The notes under the pieces: model-generated
The model's input: only the letters and a program-made list of their open reading frames with translations
What the model was told of the DNA's origin: nothing
Databases searched by the model: none
In this document: piece after piece, positions 9,001-53,367 of the stretch
Layout: every line of letters starts with the position of its first letter
Position numbering within the stretch: the stretch's first letter is position 1
DNA from: a virus
Virus record (IMG/VR): IMGVR_UViG_3300034284_001445
Span: 1-62,150 of that record
Direction: 5' to 3' (one strand)
DNA length: 62,150 nt
Translations under genes and position numbers: made by a program

Positions 9001-12000
9001 AGGTTCTTCAGGAACTTCTGGTTCTTCTGGAACAAATGGTACGGATGGTGCGTCTTCATTGAGTAGGTCTTCAGGAACATCTGGTTCTTCTGGTAGTACT
9101 GGTACGAACGGTACAAATGGTGCTTCAGCGAATAGTGGTAGCTCAGCTACATCAGGTTCTTCTGCTACTTCAGGTACTGCGGGTACAAACGGTTTATCAC
9201 AATTAAGTGGTTCTTCAGGATCAGCTGGTAGTTCGGCTACATCAGGTACATCTGGCTCAAACGGAACAGCTGGTAACTCGGGTTTATCTCAGTTAAGTGG
9301 TTCAAGCGCATCTTCTGGTTCTTCAGGAACAAATGGTACTTCAGGTTTAAGTAGATCGTCAGGTTCTTCTGGAACATCTGGTTCTTCTGGAACAAATGGT
9401 ACTGATGGCCAATCATCACTAAGTAGATCAAGTGGTACTTCAGGTAGTTCAGGATCAACTGGAACAGTTGGTACAAACGGTGCTTCAGCTAACTCTGGTT
9501 CTTCAGCGACTTCTGGTAGCTCAGCTACTTCGGGTACAATTGGTACATCTGGGTTAGGCAGATTGTCTGGGTCTTCAGCAACATCTGGTACATCTGGTAC
9601 TTCTGGTACAGATGGTCAGTCAGCATTAAGTGATACTTCAGGAACTTCAGGTAGTTCAGGATCAACAGGTAGTTCAGGTACTGACGGAGCATCTGCTTTA
9701 AGTAGAAGTTCAGGCACAAGTGGTTCTTCAGGTTCTACGGGTACAAATGGTACAGTTGGTTCAAGTAATAATAGTGGTTCAGCTGGAACTTCTGGTAGCT
9801 CAGCTACTTCGGGTACAGTTGGTACATCAGGTGTTGCCGCAAATAGTGGTATATCTGTTACATCAGGAACTTCAGGAACATCTGGTTCAAGTGGTTCTAA
9901 AGGTACTGACGGTACTGCGGGTGTATCGGGTGCGTCAGCATCTTCAGGTTCATCAGCAACCTCTGGTTCTACGGGAACAAACGGAACAGCTGGTAATTCT
10001 GGATTGTCTCAATTAAGTGGTTCATCTGCTTCTTCAGGTTCATCGGGAACAACTGGTACTGCTGGTACAAACGGTTCGAGTAGATTAAGTGGGTCTTCAG
10101 CAACAGCTGGAACTTCAGGTACATCTGGAACTGATGGCCAATCAGCATTAAGTGATACTTCTGGAACTTCAGGTAGTTCTGGATCAACAGGTACGTCAGG
10201 TACAGATGGTCTTTCTGGATTAAGTAGAAGTTCTGGGTCATCAGGAACTGCTGGTTCTTCAGGATCAACTGGTACTAACGGTACATCTGGTTTATCAGGT
10301 GCTTCAGCATCTTCTGGTAGCTCTGCTACTTCAGGTTCTACTGGTACAAACGGAACCGCTGGTAACTCAGGTTTATCTCAGTTAAGTGGTTCTAGCGCAT
10401 CTTCGGGGTCTTCAGGAACAAATGGTACGGTTGGTACATCAGGTTTATCAAGATTAAGCGGATCTTCAGCAACAGCTGGAACCTCTGGTACTTCTGGTAC
10501 AGACGGTCAATCAGGTTTAAGTAGAAGTTCTGGTTCAGCTGGAACTTCAGGTTCAAGTGGTTCTACAGGTACAAATGGAACATCAGGTAATGCTGGTAAT
10601 AGTGGTTTAAGTTCAACTTCAGGTAGCTCTGCAACTTCAGGTTCAACTGGTACAAATGGTACAGCAGGTAACTCAGGTTTGTCACAATTGTCTGGGTCTT
10701 CTGCTTCTTCAGGTTCTTCTGGTTCTTCAGGAACAAATGGTACTTCAGGTTTAAGTAGATCTTCAGGTTCTTCAGGAACTTCAGGTTCTTCTGGAACAAA
10801 TGGTACGGATGGTCAGTCTGCTTTAAGTAGAAGCTCAGGAACTTCAGGTTCTTCAGGTTCAACTGGTACGAATGGTACATCAGGTTTAAGTTCAAATAGT
10901 GGATCAAGTGCGTCAAGCGGTTCAAGTGGTTCTTCAGGAACAAATGGTACTGCTGGTTTAAGTAGGTCTTCTGGTTCTTCTGGAACAAGCGGTTCTTCTG
11001 GAACAAATGGTACCGATGGTCAATCTAGTTTAAGTAGATCTTCAGGAACATCTGGTAGTTCAGGGTCAACTGGTACAAACGGAACTGCTGGTAACTCAGG
11101 TTTATCACAATTAAGTGGTTCTTCAGCATCTAGCGGTTCTACAGGTACCGCTGGTACCGCTGGTTTATCAAGATTGTCAGGTTCTTCTGGATCTTCTGGT
11201 TCTTCAGGAACAAATGGTACAGATGGTCAGTCTGGTTTAAGTAGAAGTTCGGGAACCGCTGGTTCTTCAGGTTCAACTGGTACAGCGGGTAATAATGGTG
11301 CGAGTAATAACTCAGGTTCATCAGGCACATCTGGTTCTAATGGTACTTCAGGTAATGCTGGAAATATAGGTGCTAGTGCATTAAGCGGGTCTTCAGGATC
11401 GACTGGTACAAATGGTACTACAGGTATAATCGGTGGTAATGGTTTATCAGCTAACTCTGGTAGTTCAGCGTCTTCAGGATCAACTGGTACAAATGGTACA
11501 TCAGGTTTAAGTAGATCGTCAGGTTCTTCAGGAACTTCTGGTTCTTCTGGAACAAATGGTACTGATGGTGCGTCTTCATTGAGTAGATCAAGTGGTACTT
11601 CAGGTAGTTCAGGTAGTACTGGTACTGCTGGTACTGACGGTATTTCTAGAATAGCAGGTTTTGCGGGTACTTCAGGTACTTCAGCAACTTCAGGTACAAT
11701 TGGTACGGTTGGTAACAATGGTGCTAGTAATAACTCAGGTTCTTCAGGAACTTCTGGTTCTTCAGGTTCAACTGGTACAAACGGAACTGCTGGTAACTCA
11801 GGTTTATCACAATTAAGTGGTTCTTCAGCATCTTCAGGTTCTTCAGGATCAACTGGTACTGCTGGTACAAATGGTTTAGCTGTTGGTTCTGGTATAAGTA
11901 CTCTATCAGGTTCTTCAGGATCAACTGGTACAAACGGTACAAATGGTAATGCTGGTAACATCGGTGCTTCAGCTAATAGTGGATCTTCAGGATCAACTGG

Positions 12001-14971
12001 TACAAATGGTACTACAGGTATAATCGGTGGTAATGGTTTATCAGCTAACTCTGGTAGTTCAGCGTCTTCAGGATCAACTGGTACAAATGGTACGAGTGGT
12101 TTAAGTGGATTGTCAGGTTCTTCTGGAACTTCTGGTTCTTCAGCGACTTCAGGATTAGCTGGTTCTTCAGGTTCTTCAGGTACGGAAGGAACAACAGGAA
12201 CAACAGGGTTTAGAGGTCAATCAGGATTTAGCGGAACATCTGGTTTAAGCGGTTCTGCTGGTTCAACAGGTTCTAACGGTACATCGGGTAATGCGGGTAA
12301 CATCGGAGCTTCGGCTTTAAGTGGTTCATCTGGTTCTACTGGTTCTAACGGTACAGGTGGTGTGGCTGGATTAAATGGTATTAGCGCTCTTTCAGGAACA
12401 AGTGGTTCTTCAGGAACTGCTGGTAATAGTGGTTTGGGTGGTTCTTCAGGAACTTCTGGTTCTTCTGGTTCTTCAGGTACTGCGGGTGCTTCAGGTTCAT
12501 CACGATTAAGTGGTTCTTCAGCAACTTCAGGTTCTAATGGTACTTCAGGTAATGCTGGTAACATTGGTGCAAGTGCTAATAGTGGTTCTTCAGGATCAAC
12601 AGGTACAAATGGTACTACAGGTAATGCTGGTGCTAATGGTAACTCAGCGGTGAGTGGTACCTCTGGTTCGACTGGTACTGCTGGTACAAACGGTTTACCT
12701 GTTCCTTCAGGTATAAGTCAACTTTCTGGTTCTTCAGGATCAACAGGTACAAACGGTACAAATGGTAATGCTGGTAACATCGGTGCTTCAGCTAATAGTG
12801 GATCTTCAGGATCAACTGGTACTAACGGAACTACAGGTAACAACGGTAACAGCGGTAACTCTGGATTAAGTGGAACAAATGGATCTACAGGTACAAATGG
12901 TAACAATGGTGCTAATGGTGTAAGTGGTTTATCTGGTTTATCGGGTTCTAACGGAACAGCTGGTACATCAGGTGCTAGTGGTGGAAATGGTGTTAGTGGT
13001 TTATCAGGTTTATCAGGTTCAAATGGTTCAAATGGTACAAATGGTAATGCTGGTGGAAACGGTAATTCAGGCCTATCAGGTACTTCAGGGTCAACAGGTT
13101 CTACAGGTACTACAGGTAATGCTGGTGGTAATGGTAATTCAGCGGTGAGTGGTTCTTCAGGTTCATCGGGCACTGGTGGTACAAACGGTTTACCTGTTCC
13201 TTCAGGTATAAGTCAACTTTCTGGTTCTTCAGGATCTTCAGGTACAAATGGTACTTCAGGTAATGCTGGTACTATTGGTTTATCAAGATTGAGTGGTTCT
13301 TCAGGTTCAACTGGTACTAACGGAACTTCAGGTAACAATGGTAACAGCGGTAACTCAGGTAACTCTGGATTAAGTGGGACCAATGGATCAAACGGTACTA
13401 ACGGTAACAATGGTGCTAATGGTGTAAGTGGTTTAAGTGGTATTTCAGGTTCTAACGGAACAGCTGGTACATCAGGTGCTAGTGCTGGAAATGGTGTAAG
13501 TGGTTTATCTGGTTCTTCTGGATCTACAGGTACAAGCGGTACTACAGGTAATGCTGGTGCTATTGGTTTATCAAGATTGAGCGGTTCTTCAGGATCGACT
13601 GGTACAAATGGTACAAACGGTAATAATGGTGCTAACGGTAACTCAGGTAATTCTGGTCTATCAGGTTCTAACGGTACCGCTGGTACATCAGGTGCTAGTG
13701 GTGGAAATGGTGTAAGTGGTTTAAGTGGTATTTCAGGTTCTAACGGAACTGCTGGTACAAATGGTAACAACGGTGCTAATGGTAACAGTGGTAATTCAGG
13801 CCTATCAGGATCAACAGGTACAAATGGTACAACTGGTAATAATGGTAATGCTGGTGGTAATGGTAATTCAGCGGTGAGTGGTTCTTCAGGTTCATCGGGC
13901 ACTGGTGGTACAAACGGTTTACCTGTTCCTTCAGGTATAAGTCAACTTTCTGGTTCTTCAGGTTCAACTGGTACTAACGGAACTTCAGGTAACAACGGTA
14001 ACAATGGTAACTCTGGTTTATCAGGTCTATCAGGTTCAAATGGTTCAAACGGTACTAACGGTAACAATGGTGGTGTTGGTCTTGGTGGTGTCTCAGGTGT
14101 AAGTGGAACTAATGGTTCTACAGGTACTGGTGGTGCTAATGGTCTTAACGGTGGTAATGGTAATAGTGGTGTTTCGGGTGTTAACGGCTCAAATGGTACA
14201 AATGGTGCAGCTGGTAACAACGGTAACAACGGTGCAAACGGTACTTCAGGTGTTGCTGGTAACAATGGTAACAACGGTGCAGGTGGTTTATCAGGTGTAA
14301 ATGGTTCTAACGGTACAAATGGTGCAGCTGGTAACAACGGTAACAACGGTGCAGGTGGTTTATCAGGTGTAAATGGTTCTAACGGTACAAATGGTGCAGC
14401 TGGTAACAATGGTAACAACGGTGCAGGTGGTTTATCAGGCGCTAACGGTACAAATGGTACTACAGGTGTTGCTGGAACAAGTGGTCAATCTATTAATGGT
14501 ACATCTGGTATCAGTGGTGGTTCATTCACAAACCAACCTGACTACTTGGTTAGAACAACAAGTGCAACACAAGTACAAAGTGTAAGCTTCTTGAAAGTTG
14601 ATACAACTAGTAACAGACTTGGTATTAACAATGCCTCACCATCATATACATTGGATGTTAGTGGTACTATCTACGCTTCTGCTGATGTTATTGCATTCTC
14701 AGATGAAAGAGTTAAGGATAATGTTGTTACAATTAGCGATGCTTTGAATAAAGTTAGAAGTATGAGAGGTGTTAACTATACGAGAAATGACGTTGAGGAC
14801 AAATCATTGAAAATGGGTGTTATTGCACAAGAAGTTCAAAAAGTTATCCCAGAGGTTATATCAACAAGAGAATCTGACGGATACTTAGGGGTAGCTTACT
14901 CAAACTTGGTTGGTCTACTTATTGAAGCAATAAAAGATCTTGACAAAGAAATCCAAGATTTAAAAAAATAA
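1..14971 (+). CDS. Giant Gly/Ser/Thr triplet-repeat fibre with C-terminal S74 chaperone (5' partial)
   Basis: The reading frame is open from base 2, so the real start lies upstream of the window; a TTG at 32 only mimics a start (residue numbers here count from it). About 4,830 residues are uninterrupted three-residue repeats such as GTS-GSS-GSN-GTN, followed by a linker with an LDVSG motif and a peptidase S74 domain (about residues 4885-4979). That domain carries the SDERVK signature with candidate Ser4890/Lys4895 catalytic dyad. S74 domains trimerise phage fibres and then cut themselves off. The product is therefore most likely a trimeric, very long tail or head fibre. Composition changes along the chain: GESGSTGSDG-type repeats first, then GSSATSGSSATSG, then Asn-rich GNNGNSG. 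It is one of only two plus-strand genes here. Fibre identity is strong; target and virion position are unknown. Confidence 0.93.
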   Translation, partial: GVDGSFGTSGLSGESGSTGSDGSSGADGSFGTSGQSGTSGSTGSDGSSGNDGSFGTSGQSGESGSTGTDGISGNNGSNGTSGISGESGSSGTNGVDGVDGVDGTSGVSGSNGTSGISGESGSNGTYGSSGNDGSFGTSGQSGESGSTGTDGSSGNNGSNGTSGISGESGSTGTDGSSGLDGSFGTSGQSGESGSTGTDGSSGNDGSFGTSGLSGESGSTGSDGSSGNNGSNGTSGVSGESGSNGTDGSSGVYGSFGSNGRSGESGSNGSDGSSGLNGVNGVSGVSGSDGTSGLSGVDGSFGTSGLSGESGSTGSDGSSGNDGSYGTSGQSGTSGSTGSDGSSGNDGSYGTSGLSGESGSTGTNGSSGADGSNGTSGISGDSSSSGTSGSSGSNGTSGIDGESNLSSTSGTSGSSGSTGTSGIGGDSNLSSTSGTSGSSGSSGSTGTNGTAGASGLSQFSGSSGTAGSTGTNGTSGLSANSGSSATSGSSATSGSNGSSGASASSGSSATSGTVGSSGLSASSGSSATSGTNGTSGLSANSGSSATSGTSATSGSSGSSGTSGASALSGSSATSGSSATSGTNGTSGLAANSGSSASSGSSATSGTAGSSGLSASSGSSASSGTSATSGSAGSSGASASSGTSATSGSSATSGTAGTSGSSGASASSGTSASSGSSATSGTAGTSGLSANSGSSATSGSSATSGTTGTSGLAGSSKTSGSSGTSGSSGVDGADGISAISATSGSSGSSGTNGTGGLSGNSGSSATSGSSATSGTAGSSGLSSSAGSSATSGTSGSTGSVGSSGASASSGTSASSGSSATSGTNGTSGLAANSGSSGSAGSSGTSATSGSSGSAGSSGASASSGTSASSGSSATSGTNGTSGLAANSGSSATSGSSATSGTAGSSGLSASSGSSASSGTSGTSGSAGFSGASASSGTSASSGSSATSGTNGTSGLSSNSGSSATSGSSATSGTAGSSGLSASSGTSASSGTSGSTGSNGSSGASASSGTSASSGSSATSGTNGTSGLAANSGSSATSGSSATSGTSGSSGSSASSGTAGSSGNSNSSGSSGTSGSSATSGTNGTSGLSSNSGSSATSGSSATSGTAGSSGLSASSGSSATSGTAGSTGSSGSSGASASSGTSASSGSSATSGTNGTSGLSALSGSSATSGSSATSGTAGSSGLSASSGSSATAGTSGSAGSAGSSGASASSGTSASSGSSATSGTNGTSGLSRLSGSSATAGTSGTSGTDGQSALSDTSGTSGSSGSTGTSGTDGASALSKSSGTSGSSGSSGSTGTNGTSGLSANSGSSATSGSSATSGTTGTSGSSALSGSAGTSATSGTAGSSGLSSSSGSSATSGTAGSSGSNGSSGASASSGTSASSGSSATSGTNGTSGLAANSGSSGTSASSGTTGTAGTNGLSQLSGSSATSGSSATSGTAGSSGLSASSGSAGSSATSGTTGTSGSSALSGSAGSSATSGSSGSTGSAGTSGASANSGSSATSGSSATSGTNGTSGLGRLSGSSATAGTSGTSGTDGQSALSDTSGTSGSSGSTGTSGTDGQSGLSRSSGTSGSSGSSGSTGTNGTSGLSANSGSSATSGSSATSGTTGTSGSSALSGSSGSAGTSATSGTAGSSGLSASSGSAGTSATSGSSGSAGTSGASALSGSSATSGSSGSTGTAGTSGVSANSGSSATSGSSATSGTIGTSGLSRLSGSSATAGTSGTSGTDGVSATSDTSGTSGSSGSTGTSGTDGQSALSKSSGTSGSSGSSGSTGTNGTSGLSSNSGSSATAGSSATSGTTGTSGSSALSGSAGSAGSSATSGTSGSSGLSASSGSAGTSASSGSTGSAGTSGLSANSGSSATSGSSATSGTIGTSGLSQLSGSSGSAGTSATSGTSGSSGSSGSAGTDGASALSRSSGTSGSSGSTGTNGTSGLSSNSGSSATSGTSATSGSAGTVGSSALSGSSGSAGSSATAGTSGSSGSAGTSGLSANSGSSATSGSSATSGTNGTSGLGRLSGSSATAGTSGTSGTDGQSALSDTSGTSGSSGSTGTSGTDGQSSLSRSSGTSGSSGSTGSNGTNGASANSGSSATSGSSATSGTVGTSGLSQLSGSSGSAGTSATSGTSGSSGSSGTSGTDGASALSKSSGTSGSSGSSGSTGTNGTSGLSSNSGSSGTSASSGSTGSTGTSGASANSGSSATSGSSATSGTAGTSGLGRLSGSSATAGTSGTSGTDGQSALSDTSGTSGSSGSTGTSGTDGQSGLSRSSGSSGTAGSSGSTGTNGTSGLSSNSGSSATAGSSATSGTAGTSGVSQLSGSSGSAGTSATSGTSGSSGSSGSAGTDGASALSRSSGTSGSSGSTGTNGTNGASANSGSSATAGSSATSGTAGTSGLSSLSGSSGSAGSSATSGTSGSNGTAGNSGLSQLSGSSASSGSSGTNGTSGLSRSSGSSGTSGSSGTNGTDGQSSLSRSSGTSGSSGSTGTNGTNGASANSGSSATSGSSATSGTIGTSGLSQLSGSAGTSGSSASSGTSGTVGSSALSGSAGSAGSSGTSGTAGSSALSGSAGSSATSGSSGSTGSNGTSGASANSGSSATSGSSATSGTNGTSGLGRLSGSSATAGTSGTSGTDGQSALSDTSGTSGSSGSTGTSGTDGQSSLSRSSGTSGSSGSTGSNGTSGASANSGSSATSGSSATSGTVGTSGLSQLSGSSGSAGSSATSGTSGSSGSSASSGSAGTSGQSANSGSSGTSASSGSTGTNGTAGLSGLSQLSGSSASSGSSGTTGTAGTNGSSRLSGSSATAGTSGTSGTDGQSALSDTSGTSGSSGSTGTSGTDGQSGLSRSSGSAGTSGSSGSTGTNGTAGASGLSQLSGSSATSGSSGTNGTSGLSRSSGSSGTSGSSGTNGTDGASALSRSSGTSGSSGSTGTTGTNGASANSGSSGTSGTSATSGSAGTVGSSALSGSSGSSATSGTSGSSGTAGNSGLSQLSGSSASSGSSGTNGTSGLSRSSGSSGTSGSSGTNGTDGASSLSRSSGTSGSSGSTGTNGTNGASANSGSSATSGSSATSGTAGTNGLSQLSGSSGSAGSSATSGTSGSNGTAGNSGLSQLSGSSASSGSSGTNGTSGLSRSSGSSGTSGSSGTNGTDGQSSLSRSSGTSGSSGSTGTVGTNGASANSGSSATSGSSATSGTIGTSGLGRLSGSSATSGTSGTSGTDGQSALSDTSGTSGSSGSTGSSGTDGASALSRSSGTSGSSGSTGTNGTVGSSNNSGSAGTSGSSATSGTVGTSGVAANSGISVTSGTSGTSGSSGSKGTDGTAGVSGASASSGSSATSGSTGTNGTAGNSGLSQLSGSSASSGSSGTTGTAGTNGSSRLSGSSATAGTSGTSGTDGQSALSDTSGTSGSSGSTGTSGTDGLSGLSRSSGSSGTAGSSGSTGTNGTSGLSGASASSGSSATSGSTGTNGTAGNSGLSQLSGSSASSGSSGTNGTVGTSGLSRLSGSSATAGTSGTSGTDGQSGLSRSSGSAGTSGSSGSTGTNGTSGNAGNSGLSSTSGSSATSGSTGTNGTAGNSGLSQLSGSSASSGSSGSSGTNGTSGLSRSSGSSGTSGSSGTNGTDGQSALSRSSGTSGSSGSTGTNGTSGLSSNSGSSASSGSSGSSGTNGTAGLSRSSGSSGTSGSSGTNGTDGQSSLSRSSGTSGSSGSTGTNGTAGNSGLSQLSGSSASSGSTGTAGTAGLSRLSGSSGSSGSSGTNGTDGQSGLSRSSGTAGSSGSTGTAGNNGASNNSGSSGTSGSNGTSGNAGNIGASALSGSSGSTGTNGTTGIIGGNGLSANSGSSASSGSTGTNGTSGLSRSSGSSGTSGSSGTNGTDGASSLSRSSGTSGSSGSTGTAGTDGISRIAGFAGTSGTSATSGTIGTVGNNGASNNSGSSGTSGSSGSTGTNGTAGNSGLSQLSGSSASSGSSGSTGTAGTNGLAVGSGISTLSGSSGSTGTNGTNGNAGNIGASANSGSSGSTGTNGTTGIIGGNGLSANSGSSASSGSTGTNGTSGLSGLSGSSGTSGSSATSGLAGSSGSSGTEGTTGTTGFRGQSGFSGTSGLSGSAGSTGSNGTSGNAGNIGASALSGSSGSTGSNGTGGVAGLNGISALSGTSGSSGTAGNSGLGGSSGTSGSSGSSGTAGASGSSRLSGSSATSGSNGTSGNAGNIGASANSGSSGSTGTNGTTGNAGANGNSAVSGTSGSTGTAGTNGLPVPSGISQLSGSSGSTGTNGTNGNAGNIGASANSGSSGSTGTNGTTGNNGNSGNSGLSGTNGSTGTNGNNGANGVSGLSGLSGSNGTAGTSGASGGNGVSGLSGLSGSNGSNGTNGNAGGNGNSGLSGTSGSTGSTGTTGNAGGNGNSAVSGSSGSSGTGGTNGLPVPSGISQLSGSSGSSGTNGTSGNAGTIGLSRLSGSSGSTGTNGTSGNNGNSGNSGNSGLSGTNGSNGTNGNNGANGVSGLSGISGSNGTAGTSGASAGNGVSGLSGSSGSTGTSGTTGNAGAIGLSRLSGSSGSTGTNGTNGNNGANGNSGNSGLSGSNGTAGTSGASGGNGVSGLSGISGSNGTAGTNGNNGANGNSGNSGLSGSTGTNGTTGNNGNAGGNGNSAVSGSSGSSGTGGTNGLPVPSGISQLSGSSGSTGTNGTSGNNGNNGNSGLSGLSGSNGSNGTNGNNGGVGLGGVSGVSGTNGSTGTGGANGLNGGNGNSGVSGVNGSNGTNGAAGNNGNNGANGTSGVAGNNGNNGAGGLSGVNGSNGTNGAAGNNGNNGAGGLSGVNGSNGTNGAAGNNGNNGAGGLSGANGTNGTTGVAGTSGQSINGTSGISGGSFTNQPDYLVRTTSATQVQSVSFLKVDTTSNRLGINNASPSYTLDVSGTIYASADVIAFSDERVKDNVVTISDALNKVRSMRGVNYTRNDVEDKSLKMGVIAQEVQKVIPEVISTRESDGYLGVAYSNLVGLLIEAIKDLDKEIQDLKK
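2..14522 (+). repeat. Degenerate 9-base/3-residue coding repeat of the fibre shaft
   Basis: Nearly every third residue is Gly, but in the middle section Ala, Arg, Lys, Asn, Gln or Asp replaces Gly at the same phase (GSS-ATS, RLS, QLS), so the three-residue register is kept while strict collagen rules are broken. Proline is almost absent apart from a few GLPVPSG segments near 12.7, 13.2 and 13.9 kb. A longer charged block containing TDGQSALSDTSG recurs about nine times between 3.7 and 10.3 kb. Synonymous codons vary between copies, so the array is ancient or diversified rather than a recent perfect expansion. Confidence 0.9.
14540..14971 (+). other. Fibre C-terminal head region with S74 self-cleaving chaperone domain
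   Basis: After the repeats comes a non-repetitive region: a short beta-rich stretch with GINNASPSYTLDVSG, then FSDERVKDNV and a helical tail ending in EIQDLKK. The layout (LDVSG motif, then SDxRxK, then a coiled-coil end) is typical of peptidase S74 intramolecular chaperones of phage endosialidases and fibres, in which a Ser-Lys pair releases the chaperone after trimer assembly. Cleavage would be expected immediately before Ser4890, leaving a C-terminal fragment of about 90 residues. Inference from motif only. Confidence 0.85.
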
Positions 14972-16434: not shown

Positions 16435-17706
16435 CTAAAAAAACTTACCAAAAAAACTTTTTTTCTCTTTTTTTTCTAAGACCTCTTCAGTAACTTCTTG
16501 AATAATCTCTTCTTTTTTACTTAAAAGTCTATCAACAGCGTCTATAACTGTTTGAGTTTTAATAGTTTTAGAACATTCAAAATGTCTTGGTGTGTCTTTA
16601 TGATCTGGGCACCATTCCCAATCCCCTGGATTTAACCAATGTCTGTTAAAACATCCGTTACAAACATCTGGATTAAAAATTCTTTCGCAATCAGCAAACT
16701 CTGATAAAGGATAACTAAACCCTGAAATAAGAACCGTAGGTGTTCCAATAGCCCAAGATAACCAACTTAACCCACTACCAAGGCCAATAAAAGCTGACGC
16801 ATGTTTAATATCAATCATTCGGTCAACAAGATCAATGTGACCACCAGTTTTATCGATAACGTTCTTTAATGTACCACCAAGTTTGGAGTCATGCCAAGCA
16901 TCACCTAATTTTTCTGATGTAATCATAACAACCTTATAACCATTATCATTTAAATGATCGATAACACCTTGCCACCCACCTGGATGATTCCAATACTTAG
17001 CGTGCGCAGATGCGTGAGGTGCAATAATTACGTATTTACCGTCAATCCTACTAGGTTCATCAGGTACAAATACCTTTGGTTTAACTTCTTCGTAATCAAG
17101 ACCCAAAATACATGAACTACTTTCTTGTAACGGGTGTTGTTTAAAGTCGATTGGGATTTTAGATTTAACAACTTCTTTGTCATCATAGAACCAACCGATT
17201 TTATACATAGCGTACAAATCAATCACAGGCGTACCAGGTTTAACAAATTCAATTTCTGAGTACATCTTTTCAAACCATTCATTATGGAATGTTGAACACA
17301 ATACTTTACAACCGTGTTTCTTTCTAAACTCATCCACATAAGGGAACCAAGCCATTGTATCACCAACAGCGGAGCTATCTAAGTGGATATAAACTCTTTT
17401 GTCCTTACAGTCGTATGTGTGTTCAAAAACCAACTCATCAGTTTCTAATTCATACACCTTAATATTCCATTCGATGAAATATTCGATAGCACTTTTAGTC
17501 CACATGTTATTTGTAATCTCAGATACGTGATGTACGTGTCCAGTTTTATTATCAGAAAAAACAACCTTGTATTTTTTAGATATTGGTCCTTTAATCTCAC
17601 ACAAAGCACCATTCACAAAATGTATGATAAATGAGTTAGATGGTTCTTTAAAATCTTTTCTTAAGATTTCCGTATTATTGTATTCGTTAGTTAATATTTC
17701 CTTCAT
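16435..17706 (-). CDS. Autotransporter O-heptosyltransferase-like (BAHT) protein glycosyltransferase
   Basis: 423 residues. The N-terminal ~100 residues are strand-rich; then comes a GT-B (GT9-type) enzyme with IHLDSSAVGDTMAW (Asp110), HASAHAKYW and GLGSGLSWLSWAIGTP sugar-nucleotide motifs. Near the end Cys349, Cys352, Cys366 and Cys378 (CNGC, CPDH, HFEC) match the metal-binding iron finger of the TibC/Aah family. Those enzymes transfer heptose to Ser side chains of repetitive autotransporter adhesins. The Ser-rich giant fibre next door (1.5 kb away) is an obvious candidate acceptor; this is inference. It overlaps the carbamoyltransferase gene by 20 bases and ends a five-gene operon. The donor sugar is unknown. 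The last 30 residues are Lys/Glu-rich. Confidence 0.8.
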   Translation of the reverse strand: MKEILTNEYNNTEILRKDFKEPSNSFIIHFVNGALCEIKGPISKKYKVVFSDNKTGHVHHVSEITNNMWTKSAIEYFIEWNIKVYELETDELVFEHTYDCKDKRVYIHLDSSAVGDTMAWFPYVDEFRKKHGCKVLCSTFHNEWFEKMYSEIEFVKPGTPVIDLYAMYKIGWFYDDKEVVKSKIPIDFKQHPLQESSSCILGLDYEEVKPKVFVPDEPSRIDGKYVIIAPHASAHAKYWNHPGGWQGVIDHLNDNGYKVVMITSEKLGDAWHDSKLGGTLKNVIDKTGGHIDLVDRMIDIKHASAFIGLGSGLSWLSWAIGTPTVLISGFSYPLSEFADCERIFNPDVCNGCFNRHWLNPGDWEWCPDHKDTPRHFECSKTIKTQTVIDAVDRLLSKKEEIIQEVTEEVLEKKEKKSFFGKFF

Positions 17707-19312
17707 ATTTTTTATAGATAAAATTGTTTATTATTATTAAGTCAACGACATCGTTTTCTAAATGGTTAAACGCTTCGTTCGGGTGACATACAATCGGTTC
17801 TTCATGCACATTAAATGATGTATTTAAAAGAACGGGTACGCCAGTTATTTTATTGTATTCATCCAATATTTTATAAAATGTTGGGTTGCTTGTTTTAGTT
17901 ACTATTTGTATTCTAGCTGTTTTATCCTTGGGGTGAACAACTGTTGGTATTCTGTCAGCCCATTCAGGTCTTGTATCATACAACATGGTCATAAATTCAG
18001 CTGTATATCTTGATTTAGTGACATTAAAGATCGTATCAGCATGTTCTTCCATAACAGCTGGTGCAAATGGCATGAAATCGTTTCTTTGGAGTTTATTATT
18101 GAGCTTATCGTAAGTATCTGGATTAGTTACCTCACCAATGATACTACGATTACCCAAAGCTCTTGGACCGTGTTCATATCTACCGTTAAAAACACCCATA
18201 ATTTTACCTTCTGCTAAATATTTTGCGGTTAATTCTGGTGTAAATATTTCTCTTGAGAATTTATTTTGGTCCCAATAATGTTCACCAACCTCAACATCTG
18301 TATATGAGGTACCCATAAACATGTTGTCCAATCTAAATGGTTTAAAGTCTGGTGTAAACATTTTATGCACTAATAAAACACAACCAAGTGGACAACCTTC
18401 GTCACCCATTGGGGGTGCCACAAACATTTCATCAACCCAGTATAGTTCATTAATACGTTTATTTAATTTTACATTAGCAAAAACACCACCAGCTACAGCA
18501 ACTTTTTTAACATTAGGATACATGTTATGTAAGTTGTTAAACACCTGTAATATTTTTTCTTCAAAGACAAGTTGTCCTGTGTAAGCTAAGTCAGCTTTTG
18601 TACCAAAAAATACCCTAGAACCTAATGTTTTATAGTACTTGGTATAAAAATCAAGGTACAGTTGACCAAATAATACATCTGATTGATCCTTGTCTGTGTG
18701 TATACCCTCAATTTTAATACATTCATTAAAAGCTTGGTATGAAACAGTGTCATGTCTACCATGAGCTGCCATACCAACAACTTTACCTTCATCTTTAAGT
18801 CGTCTAAAACCTAAAAATTCTGTTAACATTGCGTAATAATGGCCAAAAGATTTTTTTGTTAAATCTAAACCGTCAATATAATCTAAACTACCATTGGTAC
18901 CAATAAAATATTTTGCGCTATATTGTCCACCGCTAGCATCCATAGTAACAACAAGTGTGTCCTCATCAAAACCGCTCATATAATAAGCAGTGGCTGCATG
19001 TGAATCATGGTGGTCAATAAATATAAATTTTTGTTCTGGGAATACACCTAGATTCATACTTTTCCAAAATATTTTAACCTCATGTTTAGGATAGTAACTT
19101 GTTATGTAATCAACTGAATTTAGGTCTAAATTAAATTTATTAATAGCCTCAATAATTGATTGTTTTGGGTACCTAAAATAATTACCGTAAAAATCTTTGT
19201 AAACTTTTACCCTTGTACACCTTTCTTCTTCTAAAGAAAAAATTATTTTACCATCTTCTATTAAACTTATACCACAAGAATGTGATCCAGCTGAAAGCCC
19301 TAATATTCTCAT
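17687..19312 (-). CDS. NodU/TobZ-family O-carbamoyltransferase
   Basis: 541 residues, full length for the family. The N-terminal Kae1-like domain starts MRILGLSAGSHSCG and contains FIDHHDSHAATAYY (His101-His105) and VTMDASGGQYS; the C-terminal YrdC-like domain carries NGRYEHGPRALGNRSI and NDFMPFAPAV. Family members make carbamoyl-adenylate from carbamoyl phosphate and ATP and pass the carbamoyl group to a hydroxyl, usually on a sugar (NodU, TobZ) and in some cases on hydroxymethylcytosine. Inside a glycosyltransferase operon a sugar acceptor is most likely. It overlaps the upstream GT4 gene by 4 bases (ATGA) and the downstream BAHT gene by 20. Confidence 0.9.
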   Translation of the reverse strand: MRILGLSAGSHSCGISLIEDGKIIFSLEEERCTRVKVYKDFYGNYFRYPKQSIIEAINKFNLDLNSVDYITSYYPKHEVKIFWKSMNLGVFPEQKFIFIDHHDSHAATAYYMSGFDEDTLVVTMDASGGQYSAKYFIGTNGSLDYIDGLDLTKKSFGHYYAMLTEFLGFRRLKDEGKVVGMAAHGRHDTVSYQAFNECIKIEGIHTDKDQSDVLFGQLYLDFYTKYYKTLGSRVFFGTKADLAYTGQLVFEEKILQVFNNLHNMYPNVKKVAVAGGVFANVKLNKRINELYWVDEMFVAPPMGDEGCPLGCVLLVHKMFTPDFKPFRLDNMFMGTSYTDVEVGEHYWDQNKFSREIFTPELTAKYLAEGKIMGVFNGRYEHGPRALGNRSIIGEVTNPDTYDKLNNKLQRNDFMPFAPAVMEEHADTIFNVTKSRYTAEFMTMLYDTRPEWADRIPTVVHPKDKTARIQIVTKTSNPTFYKILDEYNKITGVPVLLNTSFNVHEEPIVCHPNEAFNHLENDVVDLIIINNFIYKKYEGNIN

Positions 19313-20259
19313 CGCTGTGTGTATTGTTTGTAAACCTCTAATAATTCTTTTGATCTGTTATACCATGATAAGGACTCGGCATGTTGAATAGCTCTTTCAC
19401 GATATGTATCGTAGTTGGTGATGATGTCGTCCAAACCACGTACAATGTCTGTAACCTTTCTAGGTGCTCTCCACATACCGTTAAAATCAGTTTCAATCTC
19501 AATGGCCCCGTTAATGGGTAAACCACATGCAGCGGCCTCTAATATCGTTAAATTAGGGTGCCCAGCTTCTAATTCAGAAGGATGCATGAAGATTGTGTGT
19601 CTATGATACAAATCAACTAATTCATCTTGATTTGGCTCCCATTCGATTGATAATTTTGTGTAACCATTAACCCATGGGTTTTCATTAAAGAAATTCTGGT
19701 TATTTCTTGGTCCAGCAATTGTGATTGGTAGATTTCTCGACATTGCGGCTTGGATTGCAAAACCAAAACCTTTTCTATCATAACCATCCATACCAGCTAA
19801 ACCATTATTTGCTAAACATAATAATTTATGTTCTTTTGGCCTAACATCTGATGGGTGATAAAAATCTGTATTAACACCATGTGAAAAATAAACAGCTTTT
19901 TCTGTTTCAAAATAAGGTACCAAGAATTTACCAGGCATCAAAGAAACCTGTGATTCGAGAATAGCTCTGTTATTTTGGTTAAACACGTAAGAACCTTTAC
20001 CGTAGTAGTACGCATGGTGATCATGTAATTGATAAATGTATGGTATACCCCTATCGTGTAAAAAATGACATAAATTGGCCATGTGTACGTGAACAACATC
20101 ATATTCACCTGGTTTAATCTCATTGGCGTATTTAATATCAACCTCATGTCCTAATAATCTTAAATTCTGGGTAAACTCCCATACTATTTTTTCTACAGCG
20201 CCCCAATTAGGTGGTGGAACTGGGATTCCGCATCCTGGATGTACTTGGCAAATTTTCAT
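19309..20259 (-). CDS. GT4-like glycosyltransferase
   Basis: 316 residues with a two-Rossmann GT-B layout. The N-terminal half has PPPNWGAVEKIVWEF and a DVVHVHMAN segment. The C-terminal donor-binding half has LCLANNGLAG, PITIAGPR and MHPSELEAGHPNLTILEAAACGLP, the E-x7-E-like signature of GT4 retaining transferases. It probably moves a nucleotide sugar onto a growing glycan. It overlaps the FkbM gene upstream and the carbamoyltransferase gene downstream by 4 bases each, so the operon is tightly coupled. Donor and acceptor are not predictable. Confidence 0.85.
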   Translation of the reverse strand: MKICQVHPGCGIPVPPPNWGAVEKIVWEFTQNLRLLGHEVDIKYANEIKPGEYDVVHVHMANLCHFLHDRGIPYIYQLHDHHAYYYGKGSYVFNQNNRAILESQVSLMPGKFLVPYFETEKAVYFSHGVNTDFYHPSDVRPKEHKLLCLANNGLAGMDGYDRKGFGFAIQAAMSRNLPITIAGPRNNQNFFNENPWVNGYTKLSIEWEPNQDELVDLYHRHTIFMHPSELEAGHPNLTILEAAACGLPINGAIEIETDFNGMWRAPRKVTDIVRGLDDIITNYDTYRERAIQHAESLSWYNRSKELLEVYKQYTQR

Positions 20260-20849
20260 ATTCTTTTTTTTACGTATAATAATGCTAGGTTTGTTTCTTT
20301 ATGCACTTGCTCATAATTGATATCAAACCCATTTAATGTGAATTTTTCAATTATGTCCATTATTTTATCATAATTTTCGTAAATGCTGTGTAATTCTATT
20401 ACCCATTTGTTTGCTCTCTTCATCGTCTCATTAGACATGTTAATTAATAATGGGTATTCCCACCATTCAATATCCACTTTAATAAAATCAATGTGTGTTA
20501 AACCAAAATCATGTAACATTTTTTCTATGTTATAATGACCAACTTCATCCCTATCTGAAACAAACGCTTGTGTTATGGTAACATTTTCATTTGTGTTTTC
20601 TTTTAAACACTCAACAAATGTTTCCTCACATTCAAATGAATAAACGTGTTTTGCTTTTCTGTGGTTTAAGGCGTAATTGGTAAAAAAACCAACATTCGCC
20701 CCGCAATCGACAACCACATCACCTTTTTCAATTTCAACACCATATCTTGAGTATTCGTGATCTAACCAAATCTCTTTGAAAACACATTTATACCATTCGA
20801 TATCGAAATCTGGGTGTTTTGTGTTTAATTTGTGGCCGTGTAAATACAT
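20256..20849 (-). CDS. FkbM-family SAM-dependent methyltransferase
   Basis: 197 residues. The SAM-binding motif VVDCGANVGFFTNYAL (about residues 66-81) and the downstream FIKVDIEWWEYPLL segment fit the FkbM family, which usually methylates sugar or polyketide hydroxyls and is common in bacterial glycan clusters. It is flanked on both sides by glycosyltransferases; its start shares a base with the upstream stop (TAATG) and it overlaps the GT4 downstream by 4 bases. It probably O-methylates the same glycan that the operon builds. Confidence 0.87.
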   Translation of the reverse strand: MYLHGHKLNTKHPDFDIEWYKCVFKEIWLDHEYSRYGVEIEKGDVVVDCGANVGFFTNYALNHRKAKHVYSFECEETFVECLKENTNENVTITQAFVSDRDEVGHYNIEKMLHDFGLTHIDFIKVDIEWWEYPLLINMSNETMKRANKWVIELHSIYENYDKIMDIIEKFTLNGFDINYEQVHKETNLALLYVKKRI

Positions 20850-23602
20850 TAATTAGTAAAAATTGCTGCGTAGTCGTTATCTTTATTTTTATCTTTTCTA
20901 TCTACGATAGAATAACCTGGTAAATGTTTAGTATAGATCTTGTTAGCCATAGCACCATGTAATTTAGCAACCTTGGTCATCCACAAATCAAATGCATCCC
21001 ATTTACAAGTTTCAAATCTTTCCACAAAAGTAGGTAATTTTTCTCTATTAATCAAGTAGGATTGTGCTGGCGCAAAAATACTTAAATTAAGCATTAAATC
21101 TTCGCGTTCACCACTATATCTTTCGGCACAGTAGTTACCAAAACCAACCATATCCACGTTTTCTTCTTTAGCCAATTGTGACCATCTGATTAGATTATCG
21201 TATAATTCTTGATAAGGTGCGTCAATGATAACATCACCCTCAAATACTAAGATAAAATCATATTGGTTGTTGTCTGGTAAAGTAATACCATTTTTATGCG
21301 CTAAGAAACAACCATAGTGCCCTGGGGACAGCTTGAAGTATCCTGGTTCAGATGCGACATCCTGTGGTCTATTGCAATTATCAGCTGGTGGTAAATCCTT
21401 ATAGATTAAATTAACTTTTTGATAGTACTCAACGTTATCAAAAGTATTAGCAAAATCTTTTAAAGAAAACGCTGATCGTAACTCTTTGGGGTTACTTGAT
21501 GGTTCAGTAACTAAATGCACAATTCTAATTTTAGGTTTTGAACTATCGTTGTTAGTTAATAAATTAACACTATTGTGATCACCTTTATAATCAAAATTAC
21601 CGTTATTCGGTAAAACATTTGTGATATAATTATTATCAATCTTTATAAATTTACTCTCAATAAACTGCTGTGTATCTTTATCAAATGATTGATAGTCAAC
21701 CGTATATTCAGCATTTTCATCTAAATTATAACCAACCATATTATACCAAGCACCTCTACCTGTTACCGTAATTTGCTCTTCTTTAAGTAAAGATCCATTT
21801 TTATTAATAGTGATATTAACAATTCTACTATCAACTGAATTTGATACTTGGAAGTAAACAGCAAATGAATTTGGTATATTTGTCGGTAATACTGTAAAGT
21901 ACTCCACTCTAGAATAATCTCTATGGTGGAAATTAGTTGCTACCTCAGTTTTAAATTGCTCTTCACCAACTAATTCAATCTGATTCATTTTATCTTTAAA
22001 AGCAAAATACATCATATTCTCATACCCATTACTGAACGAACCCCATTTGGTTCTCAAATTCTCGTAACCATGGACATCAAAAATTGGTTCAACGGTATCT
22101 AAATAAAATGATGGTTTAATACCCATAAAAAACGTTGTAACAGAATGACCTTCTGGATTATTTGGCATATCACCAAAATAAGCAGATTTTGTATCCAATA
22201 CATTTGAAATGTTATCTAAATACGAATCATTTTTAAGCACGTAATCATAGTTAAGGAAATAAACTTTTTCCATACCTAACTCATTTGCTAATGCGGCACC
22301 GTTATAATAGTTTGTGTAACAAGTTGGACCATGATAAATATCATTACCTTCACCTCTTAGATTAACAAACGCAAAGAAATCAGCTTCGCTGTATCTACTC
22401 TGTGAGTAGAATGTGTGTTTGGTTAGAATATTATTTTTGTCATATATACAATAGTCAACTAAACTCTGTAAATCTGGGGAAATTGGTAAATGTGAGGTTA
22501 AAATAACTTTTCTACCAGTTTTTTTAGCAGCTAAAATACATTCAACTGTTGTATCAAATACGCTTTTTGTTGTTGGGTATGTAGAAATTATAATAGCTTC
22601 TTTTTCCCTGTTAATTTCTTTTGTTTTTGGTTGAAACTCTATACCGTTTTCAAGAACTTCGGTAATTAAGGAACAGTTTTTATTAAAATCAGAGAAATCT
22701 AAATACTTTACGTTATCAAATTTATCAAAGTAATTCAAATAAACACCAAGGTTGTAAATTAAAATTGGTAAGTTCCAGGAAATTGCCTCACGAATAACCA
22801 ATGGCATAGTTTCTTTATCATTATCAGTACCTCTGGACGTGAATAAGAATAGATCCATTGCTTGATAGAACCTATCAACATCTTTTCTTTCACCGTGCCA
22901 AACAACATTACTTGGTTTATCAACCATTAAAGGTTCCCAGTAATGAGCAAAGTTACCAGCTTGATTTCCGACAGAGTGAAAAACATAATCAGGTAAAGAC
23001 TTAGCATATTCAAAAAATTCTTTTTGATTTTTTCTTGGCGTGAACAAACCAACGTGTAATACGTGTTTTTTATTAGGATCTAAATTAAGATCTCTTAACG
23101 CATTTTCTCTATTTGGTCTTTGTTTATATTCAATAGGATATTCAACCAAAACTTTTGGGATATCAATTGATTCAAATAATTTAATTTGCCAATCAGATAC
23201 AAACATAAATTTGTCTGGGTAAAATTTCTTTTGTGTCGCATCATATGATGAATCGTGAGAAGTTTCTACGATAACATAATTACGATCTTTTTTGTAAATT
23301 TCTTTTGCAACGTCAAAATCCATGAAATATTCAGGGATTTCTTCCAAGTGTATAATGTCTGGAGACACCTGGTTAATAATATCAATCAGTTGCATTTTAT
23401 TTTCTTCCAGAGTAAAGAATTTATCTGGCGCAACCATTGAAGTTATTTTATCTCTTTGTACAACCAACACGCCACCAGTGTGGTTAGACCATTCAACAAC
23501 ATATATGTCAAACGAATCTCTAAGTAATTCAATTTTTTTAGTTAAGTACTGTGGTAAACCGCCTGTGGAAAGGTGTGGGGCGATGTATAATAATTTTTTC
23601 AT
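20849..23602 (-). CDS. Three-module glycosyltransferase: GT4 + GT-A-like + GT25-like
   Basis: 917 residues, first gene of the modification operon. Residues 1 to about 310 form a GT4-like module (APHLSTGGLPQYL, HVGLFTPRKNQKEF, SWNLPILIYN). Residues about 330-560 look like a GT-A domain starting AIIISTYPTTKSVFDTT, with FLNYDYVL in the metal-binding position. A strand-rich linker follows. Residues about 695-917 resemble GT25 (RIVHLVTEPSSNP, SPGHYGCFLAHKNGI, LVFEGDVII). GT25 enzymes add galactose or glucose to LPS or, in eukaryotes, to collagen. Three linkages could thus be made by one chain. A TATATTTG promoter and the gp23 terminator lie upstream. The middle module assignment is the least certain. 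Confidence 0.8.
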   Translation of the reverse strand: MKKLLYIAPHLSTGGLPQYLTKKIELLRDSFDIYVVEWSNHTGGVLVVQRDKITSMVAPDKFFTLEENKMQLIDIINQVSPDIIHLEEIPEYFMDFDVAKEIYKKDRNYVIVETSHDSSYDATQKKFYPDKFMFVSDWQIKLFESIDIPKVLVEYPIEYKQRPNRENALRDLNLDPNKKHVLHVGLFTPRKNQKEFFEYAKSLPDYVFHSVGNQAGNFAHYWEPLMVDKPSNVVWHGERKDVDRFYQAMDLFLFTSRGTDNDKETMPLVIREAISWNLPILIYNLGVYLNYFDKFDNVKYLDFSDFNKNCSLITEVLENGIEFQPKTKEINREKEAIIISTYPTTKSVFDTTVECILAAKKTGRKVILTSHLPISPDLQSLVDYCIYDKNNILTKHTFYSQSRYSEADFFAFVNLRGEGNDIYHGPTCYTNYYNGAALANELGMEKVYFLNYDYVLKNDSYLDNISNVLDTKSAYFGDMPNNPEGHSVTTFFMGIKPSFYLDTVEPIFDVHGYENLRTKWGSFSNGYENMMYFAFKDKMNQIELVGEEQFKTEVATNFHHRDYSRVEYFTVLPTNIPNSFAVYFQVSNSVDSRIVNITINKNGSLLKEEQITVTGRGAWYNMVGYNLDENAEYTVDYQSFDKDTQQFIESKFIKIDNNYITNVLPNNGNFDYKGDHNSVNLLTNNDSSKPKIRIVHLVTEPSSNPKELRSAFSLKDFANTFDNVEYYQKVNLIYKDLPPADNCNRPQDVASEPGYFKLSPGHYGCFLAHKNGITLPDNNQYDFILVFEGDVIIDAPYQELYDNLIRWSQLAKEENVDMVGFGNYCAERYSGEREDLMLNLSIFAPAQSYLINREKLPTFVERFETCKWDAFDLWMTKVAKLHGAMANKIYTKHLPGYSIVDRKDKNKDNDYAAIFTN

Positions 23603-42528: not shown

Positions 42529-43242
42529 TCAACCATCTAAATAATTGTCCTTAAAAATACGGTATAATGACTTAAATCTTTTCATACTGTTCCTAATTTC
42601 TTTGGTATTTAGGCCAGTCATATTACGGATATACAATAATATTAAGTTTTTATTGAATTTTGGTGAATTTTTACCCTCATTAACTTGTGAAAACAATTCA
42701 CGCCACTCTTCAAGTATCTTTACCAGAGAATGACCAACTTTAAATTCATTTTCATTTAAATCGTCTGATTTTAATTCATCTTTTATATTGGTGGTTAAAG
42801 TTTCAATAAAAATTGTTAAGTCAAGATCTTCATTATCAATACGATATAATAATTCGTCTCTTTTTAAAATATCACCTTCATGTTGATCAATATCAACAAT
42901 AGATGTTGTTTTCTTATATTCTTTAACCATTTCACCAAAAAGGTAATTTTTACATATCGTACCAAAATACGAAAATGATCTTTTACCCTTTTCAGGTTTA
43001 AATTTATCAAATTTTGTCATTAAAAATGACAGAGTGTCAGCATGTAAATCGTGGAATTCGTATGATTGTCTATATAATTTATAGGTTCTAATAATACTTT
43101 CTATCATAGTATTGATAGGTTCTTGTAAGAATTCTCTATAAATTTTTTCTCTTTCGCCAACCGTTTTAGCTTCCAGAAACATGACCACCGCTTTCTCTTG
43201 CTCTACGCCATAGTAGTTGCGATCTTTTTTCTGTTTTGCCAT
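42529..43242 (-). CDS. gp55: Late-transcription sigma factor, T4 gp55-like
   Basis: 237 residues (T4 gp55: 185). A sigma region-2-like block lies at about residues 45-110: YEFHDLHADTLSFLMTKFD, then KGKRSFSYFGTICKNYLFG, matching the RNA-polymerase-binding and promoter-melting helices of gp55 homologues. It would redirect host RNA polymerase to late promoters. The C-terminal extension includes a helix-turn-helix-like RNMTGLNTKEIRNSMKRF segment. Its start shares a base with the stop of the GT2 gene upstream, tying sigma synthesis to a sugar gene. Confidence 0.85.
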   Translation of the reverse strand: MAKQKKDRNYYGVEQEKAVVMFLEAKTVGEREKIYREFLQEPINTMIESIIRTYKLYRQSYEFHDLHADTLSFLMTKFDKFKPEKGKRSFSYFGTICKNYLFGEMVKEYKKTTSIVDIDQHEGDILKRDELLYRIDNEDLDLTIFIETLTTNIKDELKSDDLNENEFKVGHSLVKILEEWRELFSQVNEGKNSPKFNKNLILLYIRNMTGLNTKEIRNSMKRFKSLYRIFKDNYLDG

Positions 43243-44072
43243 TACTCACTAACGTCATTTTCCTCATATATTATATACCTATCATTGTTAAACAAATATT
43301 CTTTTTTAGCGGTTTCCATCCAAAATAAAGCCTGTTTAGGGTTCATCTTATATTCAACAGCTTCACTATTTTTATATAACCAGAACAAGGATTCCTCTCT
43401 CATGTTAACGTGTTTGTAACCAATTTTTGGTATAACCATTGATTTGTAACCGTTTTTATGAAAACGTAATAAAAACTCATAGTTAAATGTTAATTTGATT
43501 TGTTTAAAACCGTTAATCTCGTTAAAAATAGCTGTTTTAATAACCATACCACAAGGGCTAATATTAGGATATTCTAATAAACACTCTAAATCAACATTAC
43601 CAAGTGATTCACTAAAGTTATAAGCCCAAATAGCTTCATTTGATAACCCTATAAAGCCGTTATCTTCAGAAACATCATTAACAATAGGTAAAAACATATC
43701 AACTTCTGGATACGCTTCAACATGAGTTTTAACATTACCGTACCATGTTTTTGATACTTCATCATCAAACTCTAAAATTGACATGTATTCGGTGTCAACA
43801 TGTTTTGCTGCGTAATTTATTTGGTTTTGGTAGTCGGTATCACCATCGTTTACTATGATCTCAACATTTAAACCGTATTTTGATAGGTCCATTGACTCTA
43901 ATTTAGCGTCAACCTCAATACAATTACATCTTACGATTAAAACCTTTTCTGGTTTAACTTCATTTCTACTAATTGATGATAATGCGATATCGAATAAATC
44001 ATCAAATTTTTGTTTCCCGATATCAGCAACTGAATGTACGGGAATTATAACGGTTAAATTAGTTTTGCTCAT
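43242..44072 (-). CDS. GT2-family glycosyltransferase
   Basis: 276 residues. GT-A start NLTVIIPVHSVADIG, an IIVNDGDTDYQNQINYAA segment, and ILEFDDE in the DxD metal site, then SPCGMVIKT and a C-terminal KHVNMREESLFWLYKN. Probably an inverting transferase adding one sugar to a glycan. It overlaps the upstream GT4 gene by 14 bases and touches the gp55 gene downstream. Confidence 0.85.
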   Translation of the reverse strand: MSKTNLTVIIPVHSVADIGKQKFDDLFDIALSSISRNEVKPEKVLIVRCNCIEVDAKLESMDLSKYGLNVEIIVNDGDTDYQNQINYAAKHVDTEYMSILEFDDEVSKTWYGNVKTHVEAYPEVDMFLPIVNDVSEDNGFIGLSNEAIWAYNFSESLGNVDLECLLEYPNISPCGMVIKTAIFNEINGFKQIKLTFNYEFLLRFHKNGYKSMVIPKIGYKHVNMREESLFWLYKNSEAVEYKMNPKQALFWMETAKKEYLFNNDRYIIYEENDVSE

Positions 44073-45763: not shown

Positions 45764-45816
45764 AGTTATTTATTATTTTTGTATAAAAATAACATGATCT
45801 TGGTCTAAAATAAAGT

Positions 45817-46581: not shown

Positions 46582-46594
46582 ATATTTGATTTAT

Positions 46595-49733: not shown

Positions 49734-49765
49734 ATAATATTTTTTAATTTAAATAGTTATGAAAA

Positions 49766-52084: not shown

Positions 52085-52085
52085 A

Positions 52086-53306: not shown

Positions 53307-53358
53307 AGGTTTTATATTATGTTTCCATAATAATAGGAAAAAAGGTTTAAAAATCAAA

Positions 53359-53366: not shown

Positions 53367-53367
53367 C

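What the first reader, a model, noticed from the sequence alone, without database searches (positions are those of the whole stretch)
16435..17706. Autotransporter heptosyltransferase homologue in a phage
The GT-B fold with IHLDSSAVGD, GLSWLSWAIGTP and the C-x2-C ... C ... C finger is that of TibC/Aah-type BAHTs, which I know from enterobacterial adhesin systems rather than from phages. Asp110 and the four Cys are retained, suggesting activity. It makes protein O-glycosylation, rather than polysaccharide synthesis, a concrete expectation for this phage.
Basis: partly seen in the sequence, partly recalled or inferred. Interest (0 to 1): 0.8.

Follow-up and report, generated by a model that had tools for sequence, protein, structure and literature searches.

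The report
TibC-type protein glycosyltransferase in phages
A virus of aquatic bacteria carries a relative of the enzymes that coat bacterial adhesins with sugars, placed beside a giant collagen-like tail-fibre gene, which suggests that many phages sugar-coat their own fibres with an enzyme family known so far from bacterial adhesins.

Summary
Window 17706-16435 (minus strand, 423 aa) scores 322 bits against NCBIfam TIGR04414 (Aah/TibC; cut-off 200). TibC is its only PDB sequence hit and its best fold match (E 6.7e-33, TM 0.82; LPS heptosyltransferases at best E 3e-8). The catalytic Asp (D116 here; D110 in TibC), the donor-site Lys and Trp, and all four iron-finger Cys are invariant in 83 phage homologues. 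The contig is a tailed phage, and 584 viral contigs carry relatives. New here: the likely target. The gene ends a cassette (two GT4-type glycosyltransferases, FkbM methyltransferase, carbamoyltransferase) beside a proline-poor Gly-X-Y fibre gene of at least 4979 aa with 2353 Ser/Thr. In 30 of 31 representative loci with enough flank a repeat fibre is next to it, in two gene arrangements. In other phages the enzyme is fused to the same GT4 neighbours. One neighbour ends in a domain whose best PDB fold match is human collagen galactosyltransferase COLGALT1. Best reading: O-glycosylation of the phage's own collagen-like fibre. Unproven: substrate, iron, and heptose as the sugar. Phages and sampled Flavobacteriaceae lack a clear ADP-heptose synthase domain. 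The thumb that builds the TibC ring is altered.

The parts
16435..17706 (-). TibC/Aah-type (TIGR04414) glycosyltransferase, 423 aa
17359..17361 (-). codon of the catalytic Asp (D116 = TibC D110)
   Evidence: invariant in 83 phage homologues; role from PMC4358343
16573..16662 (-). iron-finger region with C349, C352, C366, C378 (= TibC C339, 342, 358, 370)
   Evidence: four Cys 83/83
17687..19312 (-). NodU/TobZ-like carbamoyltransferase (PHROG 1601), overlaps the start of the TibC-type gene
19309..20259 (-). GT4-type glycosyltransferase, 316 aa; fused to the N-terminus of TibC-type proteins in other phages
20256..20849 (-). FkbM-family methyltransferase, 197 aa
   Evidence: TIGR01444 52.8 bits over cut-off 37.7
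20849..23602 (-). 917-aa modular glycosyltransferase: N-terminal GT4, middle domain, C-terminal GT25-like domain
20852..21532 (-). GT25-like domain; best PDB fold match human COLGALT1
1..14971 (+). giant collagen-like (Gly-X-Y) tail fibre, at least 4979 aa, open at the window's left edge; the proposed acceptor
   Evidence: convergent with the cassette
14300..14971 (+). C-terminal part of the fibre, matching tail-fibre and baseplate PHROGs (S74-type chaperone end by inspection)

Best explanation
The gene encodes an active GT-B glycosyltransferase of the Aah/TibC family. With its cassette partners it O-glycosylates Ser/Thr of the phage's own collagen-like tail fibre in the host cytoplasm before assembly. 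The TibC-type enzyme puts the first sugar on Ser/Thr, and the GT4 and GT25-like domains, FkbM methyltransferase and carbamoyltransferase extend or cap it. Shown: family identity, conserved active site, phage context, linkage to the fibre, fusions with the neighbouring glycosyltransferases. Inferred: catalysis, the fibre as acceptor, the order of action. Uncertain: whether the sugar is heptose, the oligomeric state, bound iron.
For: Family and fold. Active site: D116, K237, W315 and four Cys 83/83, R296 82/83; Ser in place of TibC T226 as in annotated plasmid-borne enzymes of Pandoraea, Paraburkholderia and Acetobacter. Acceptor: the fibre has 961 Gly-X-Y triplets, X mostly Thr/Ser and Y mostly Ser/Asn, 2353 Ser/Thr, 9 Pro, 0 Cys. 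Linkage: among 43 representatives (90% identity), 7/7 window-type loci and 23/24 of the second type with at least 4.9 kb upstream have a repeat fibre next to the cassette; the exception has a short repeat stretch. The unit recurs in the 735-kb phage LR756501 (fibre, 917-aa homologue, GT4-TibC fusion) and a fibre is near the fused gene in Microcystis phage Mel-JY01. Reverse test: 11 of 23 fibre-selected virus records carry the family against 0 of 16 capsid-related controls (Fisher p 0.0009). Fusions. Collagen-type partner. In bacteria the gene sits next to its AIDA-repeat partner.
Against: No biochemical evidence. Linkage counts are not independent (the second type is one syntenic lineage), and the 4.9-kb limit was chosen after seeing the data. 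12 of 23 fibre-bearing records lack the enzyme. In two records it lies 25 and 62 kb from the fibre; over all 11 records proximity alone is modest (combined p 0.025). The TibC substrate is a beta-helix, not Gly-X-Y. The thumb is altered.
Confidence: 0.65

Rival explanations
1. Same fibre target, but the donor is not ADP-heptose: another nucleotide sugar is used, so this is a TibC-like O-glycosyltransferase and not a heptosyltransferase. (This rival concerns only the sugar and overlaps with the best explanation.)
For: No ADP-heptose synthase domain (TIGR02199) over the cut-off in 28 phage records or in 60 Flavobacteriaceae, the family of the only host hint. TibC P300 is Gly in all 83. Fused phage forms often lose the adenine-contact Arg.
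Against: The window enzyme keeps R296, K237 and W315, and its donor-site letters equal those of the Acetobacter plasmid enzyme. 42 of 60 Bacteroidia genomes do have the synthase domain. The host of the window phage is not established.
Confidence: 0.35
2. The acceptor is another virion protein (capsid, sheath, or the second short collagen-like fibre at 59980-61680), as in mycobacteriophages, which glycosylate capsid and tail tube.
For: The cassette abuts the major capsid gene in the window type and the tail-sheath gene in the second type. Mycobacteriophage virion glycosylation is established (PMC12363180).
Against: Capsid and sheath neighbours change between arrangements, whereas the repeat fibre and the GT4-type partners stay.
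Confidence: 0.12
3. The cassette modifies host surface polysaccharide or LPS (receptor masking).
For: GT9-superfamily heptosyltransferases act on LPS; a second sugar cluster (WbsX, RgpF, GT2, KdsC-like) lies at 43242-53369.
Against: LPS heptosyltransferase models score far below their cut-offs; fold favours TibC; consistent linkage to fibre genes.
Confidence: 0.08
4. A decayed or passenger gene recently captured from a bacterium.
For: None beyond the family's bacterial fame.
Against: Invariant active site across 83 phage sequences; phage sequences are diverse and apart from the bacterial clade; over the cut-off in 1 of 395 Bacteroidia genomes, that one on a phage contig.
Confidence: 0.02

Closest known systems
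TibC / Aah bacterial autotransporter heptosyltransferases (TIGR04414; PDB 4rap, 4rb4; PMC4358343)
   Same: Sequence family, predicted fold with N-terminal beta-barrel, catalytic Asp, donor residues K/R/W, four finger Cys; in bacteria also encoded next to the protein modified
   Different: Phage-encoded; partner gene is a collagen-like fibre and not an autotransporter; P300 is Gly; thumb altered; part of a larger glycosyltransferase cassette and often fused to GT4 domains
Mycobacteriophage virion glycosylation (Che8, Corndog, Myrna; described in PMC12363180)
   Same: Phage-encoded glycosyltransferases that modify virion proteins
   Different: Those modify capsid and tail tube; no TIGR04414 enzyme or collagen-like target is described in the passages read
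Glycosylated collagens (COLGALT1 in animals, mimivirus collagen, BclA of Bacillus spores; PMC8968730)
   Same: Sugars on Gly-X-Y proteins; the C-terminal domain of the 917-aa neighbour folds like COLGALT1 and mimivirus R655
   Different: Human COLGALT1 acts on hydroxylysine; here Lys is rare (15) and Ser/Thr dominate
UniProt A0A6J5SVC1 'Glycosyltransferase Aah/TibC' [uncultured Caudovirales phage]
   Same: Phage homologue, 42% identical over the aligned part
   Different: Annotation only; no study of it was found

Membership tests
Aah/TibC O-heptosyltransferase (TIGR04414, BAHT) | score over the curated family cut-off (200 bits) | tested here: met
   322.4 bits
Aah/TibC O-heptosyltransferase (TIGR04414, BAHT) | TibC-like fold: N-terminal beta-barrel plus GT-B | tested here: met
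   AlphaFold model, strands 25-97 at pLDDT 91-96 then GT-B; TM 0.82 to 4rap. Pfam PF21129 is below its cut-off (14 against 27)
Aah/TibC O-heptosyltransferase (TIGR04414, BAHT) | catalytic Asp and donor residues (TibC D110, T226, K230, R286, W305) | tested here: met
   D116, S233 (Ser also in bacterial members), K237, R296, W315
Aah/TibC O-heptosyltransferase (TIGR04414, BAHT) | four-Cys iron finger | tested here: inconclusive
   All four Cys invariant, but the region has low pLDDT; iron not testable
Aah/TibC O-heptosyltransferase (TIGR04414, BAHT) | beta-hairpin thumb with hydrophobic tip (TibC F265, V266) for dodecamer assembly | tested here: not met
   Shortened thumb, D269-A270 at the tip, short helix in the model. 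Pandoraea members also lack the hydrophobic pair (Thr-Thr)
Aah/TibC O-heptosyltransferase (TIGR04414, BAHT) | partner autotransporter encoded nearby | tested here: not met
   Neighbours are phage and glycosyltransferase genes and a collagen-like fibre
Aah/TibC O-heptosyltransferase (TIGR04414, BAHT) | transfer of heptose from ADP-heptose to Ser/Thr | not testable with these tools
   Donor supply uncertain
GT9 LPS heptosyltransferase (WaaC/WaaF/RfaQ) | score over family cut-offs and best fold match | tested here: not met
   38 bits or less; E 3e-8 against 7e-33 for TibC
Collagen-like protein (fibre, 1-14971) | Gly at every third residue over long stretches | tested here: met
   1229 of 1252 Gly of the first 4700 residues in one register; longest perfect run 123 triplets
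GT25 / collagen galactosyltransferase (C-terminus of the 917-aa neighbour) | Pfam PF01755 over its cut-off; fold | tested here: inconclusive
   9/9 members hit PF01755 but the window member scores 19.6 against 24; best fold match COLGALT1 E 1.5e-7

The most novel reading that the evidence does not exclude
A phage-encoded collagen-glycosylation system: a TibC-type enzyme, a COLGALT1-like domain and GT4 enzymes hyperglycosylate a fibre of about 5000 residues with almost no proline, and the sugars replace proline/hydroxyproline in stiffening the Gly-X-Y shaft and shield it. It would be widespread in aquatic phages, including a 735-kb one.
Probability: 0.35. Interest if true: 0.9.

Novelty: new variant of a known kind. 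Interest (0 to 1): 0.72.

Why it matters
The Aah/TibC family is known from adhesin glycosylation in bacteria. Here a large viral branch (584 viral contigs, only 4 of 50,697 annotated phage records) is tied to collagen-like tail fibres. If right, it gives a concrete, testable enzyme-substrate pair for phage fibre glycosylation, offers a way for collagen-like shafts without proline to be stabilised, and means that adsorption, antigenicity and fibre stability of many uncultured phages depend on a modification invisible in the sequence. It also offers compact enzymes for glycosylating repeat proteins.

Tried and rejected
LPS heptosyltransferase: rejected by HMM and fold. Phage ADP-heptose synthesis: no TIGR02199 match over the cut-off in 28 records. 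A cellular Bacteroidota source: one match over the cut-off in 395 Bacteroidia and in 395 Bacteroidota genomes, both times the Winogradskyella MAG, whose contig is itself phage. One fibre DNA pattern did not match the window's own fibre, so fibre presence was also scored from translated ORFs. The PDB sequence profile of the GT25-like domain gave nothing; only the fold search did. Literature searches for phage-borne heptosyltransferases of this type found none. A clean phage-to-bacterium root for the tree was not obtained: one fused phage form (L320) branches next to the bacterial clade. Virulence plasmids of pathogens were not fetched; non-pathogen plasmids (Pandoraea, Paraburkholderia, Acetobacter) were used as bacterial references.

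Full report
Observation. The ORF lies at 17706-16435 on the minus strand (423 aa). TIGR04414 scores 322.4 bits (cut-off 200, E 3.6e-96), while LPS heptosyltransferase models score 38 bits or less. The only PDB sequence matches are TibC (4rap, 4rb4; E 2.5e-58; with a phage profile E 4.3e-72). An AlphaFold model (pLDDT 79.8, pTM 0.76) has a confident N-terminal beta-barrel and a GT-B core; its first 21 PDB fold matches are TibC chains (E down to 6.7e-33, TM to target 0.79-0.82), followed by GT9 enzymes at E 1e-8 or weaker.

Active site. Using the residues named for TibC in PMC4358343, mapped on 83 phage sequences: D110 is D116, K230 is K237, W305 is W315 and the four finger Cys are C349, C352, C366, C378, all invariant; R286 is R296 (82/83); T226 is Ser (82/83), as in bacterial members on plasmids of Pandoraea, Paraburkholderia and Acetobacter; P300 is Gly (83/83), as in Acetobacter. 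The finger is poorly modelled, so its geometry remains open. The thumb that makes the TibC ring is shortened, lacks the hydrophobic tip and is modelled as a short helix. The protein is therefore filed as a phage branch of the TIGR04414 family that works like TibC, not as a demonstrated dodecameric autotransporter heptosyltransferase.

Distribution. 584 viral contigs encode relatives, but only 4 of 50,697 annotated phage records. One close relative was found among 84,980 species genomes; it lies on a contig with tail sheath and tube genes, so it is a phage in a Winogradskyella bin. Bacteroidia and Bacteroidota samples (395 genomes each) hold no other member over the cut-off. In the tree the bacterial enzymes form one clade (100/100) and phage sequences make up the rest; root and direction of transfer are not resolved. 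The nearest named terminase relatives are Flavobacterium phages at 30% identity, so a Bacteroidota host is likely but not shown. A described group of large aquatic phages with predicted Flavobacteriia hosts has four core glycosyltransferase groups (PMC12619734); whether one of them is this enzyme was not tested.

Cassette and target. Upstream on the same strand, nearly end to end, lie a carbamoyltransferase, a GT4-type enzyme, an FkbM methyltransferase and a 917-aa modular glycosyltransferase. Downstream, beyond a glucosaminidase-type endolysin and a peptidase, a convergent ORF encodes a collagen-like fibre of at least 4979 aa that runs off the left edge of the window: 961 Gly-X-Y triplets, 2353 Ser/Thr, 9 Pro, no Cys. 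Among 43 representatives at 90% identity, 7/7 with the window's order have a repeat fibre on the 3' side, and 23/24 with a second order (fibre, 917-aa homologue, GT4, TibC-type, tail sheath) have it 4-5 kb upstream; the other 12 end before that point. The exception carries an 800-aa fibre with a short repeat stretch. Four loci that seemed to lack the fibre have matches to a repeat pattern elsewhere in the record. Reverse test: 11 of 23 records chosen only by fibre pattern carry the family (10 over the cut-off, one at 193 bits), against 0 of 16 capsid-related records, 14 of them without the pattern (Fisher p 0.0009; p 0.003 if split by fibre presence). In nine of the eleven the gap is 0.6-6.7 kb; in two it is 25 and 62 kb (combined p for proximity 0.025 over all eleven). 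These tests are not corrected for shared ancestry.

Functional coupling. In five other phage records the enzyme is fused behind a homologue of the window's 316-aa GT4 protein (E 1e-85 or better), and in four behind a homologue of the N-terminal domain of the 917-aa protein. A 735-kb metagenomic phage carries a fibre with short repeats, a shuffled 917-aa homologue and a GT4-TibC fusion side by side. The C-terminus of the 917-aa protein is weakly GT25 by Pfam (9/9 members, best E 1.1e-4, window member below the cut-off), and its model (pLDDT 72) matches human COLGALT1 and mimivirus R655 best (E 1.5e-7 and 3.6e-7). A collagen-galactosyltransferase-like domain next to a collagen-like fibre is hard to read as chance, though at 14% identity specificity cannot be inferred.

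Mechanism. Most likely the TibC-type enzyme places the first sugar on Ser/Thr of the nascent fibre in the cytoplasm, and the partners extend, methylate and carbamoylate it. Whether the sugar is heptose is open. The adenine-contact Arg is kept in the window's branch, and 42 of 60 Bacteroidia genomes have an ADP-heptose synthase domain over the cut-off, but 0 of 60 Flavobacteriaceae and 0 of 28 phages do. Glycosylation of Gly-X-Y proteins has precedents in BclA and mimivirus collagen (PMC8968730), and phage virion glycosylation in mycobacteriophages (PMC12363180).

Novelty. A phage protein named Aah/TibC exists in UniProt, and bacterial members are well studied, so the enzyme is a new variant of a known kind. 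The linkage to giant collagen-like fibres, the fusions and the COLGALT1-like partner were not found described in the library searched, which holds only open-licence papers.

Noticed in passing
window 43242-53369, minus strand: A second sugar cluster: WbsX glycosyltransferase, RgpF-like, GT2 enzymes, KdsC-like phosphatase and another glycosyltransferase, with PhoH and dUTPase genes in the same stretch.
   Followed up: partly
window 59980-61680, minus strand: A second, short collagen-like (Pfam Collagen) fibre protein with SGTSG repeats, a possible second acceptor.
   Followed up: no
L082:2-3049 (Microcystis phage Mel-JY01, PP395634.1): The collagen-like fibre ORF was missed by the depositors, who annotated two hypothetical genes antisense to it; the fused TibC-type gene is annotated only as 'methyltransferase FkbM'.
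   Followed up: partly
L327:9521-11845 (minus): A phage homologue that keeps Asp, Lys and Trp of the active site but has lost all four finger Cys and the adenine-contact Arg: a natural test of whether the iron finger is needed.
   Followed up: no
L322:5004-7112 and the ORF starting at 17424: One phage record carries two TibC-type enzymes, one fused to GT4 and one stand-alone and divergent.
   Followed up: no
window 12217-14418, minus strand: Long proline-rich antisense ORFs are by-products of the Gly-X-Y repeat, not genes.
   Followed up: partly
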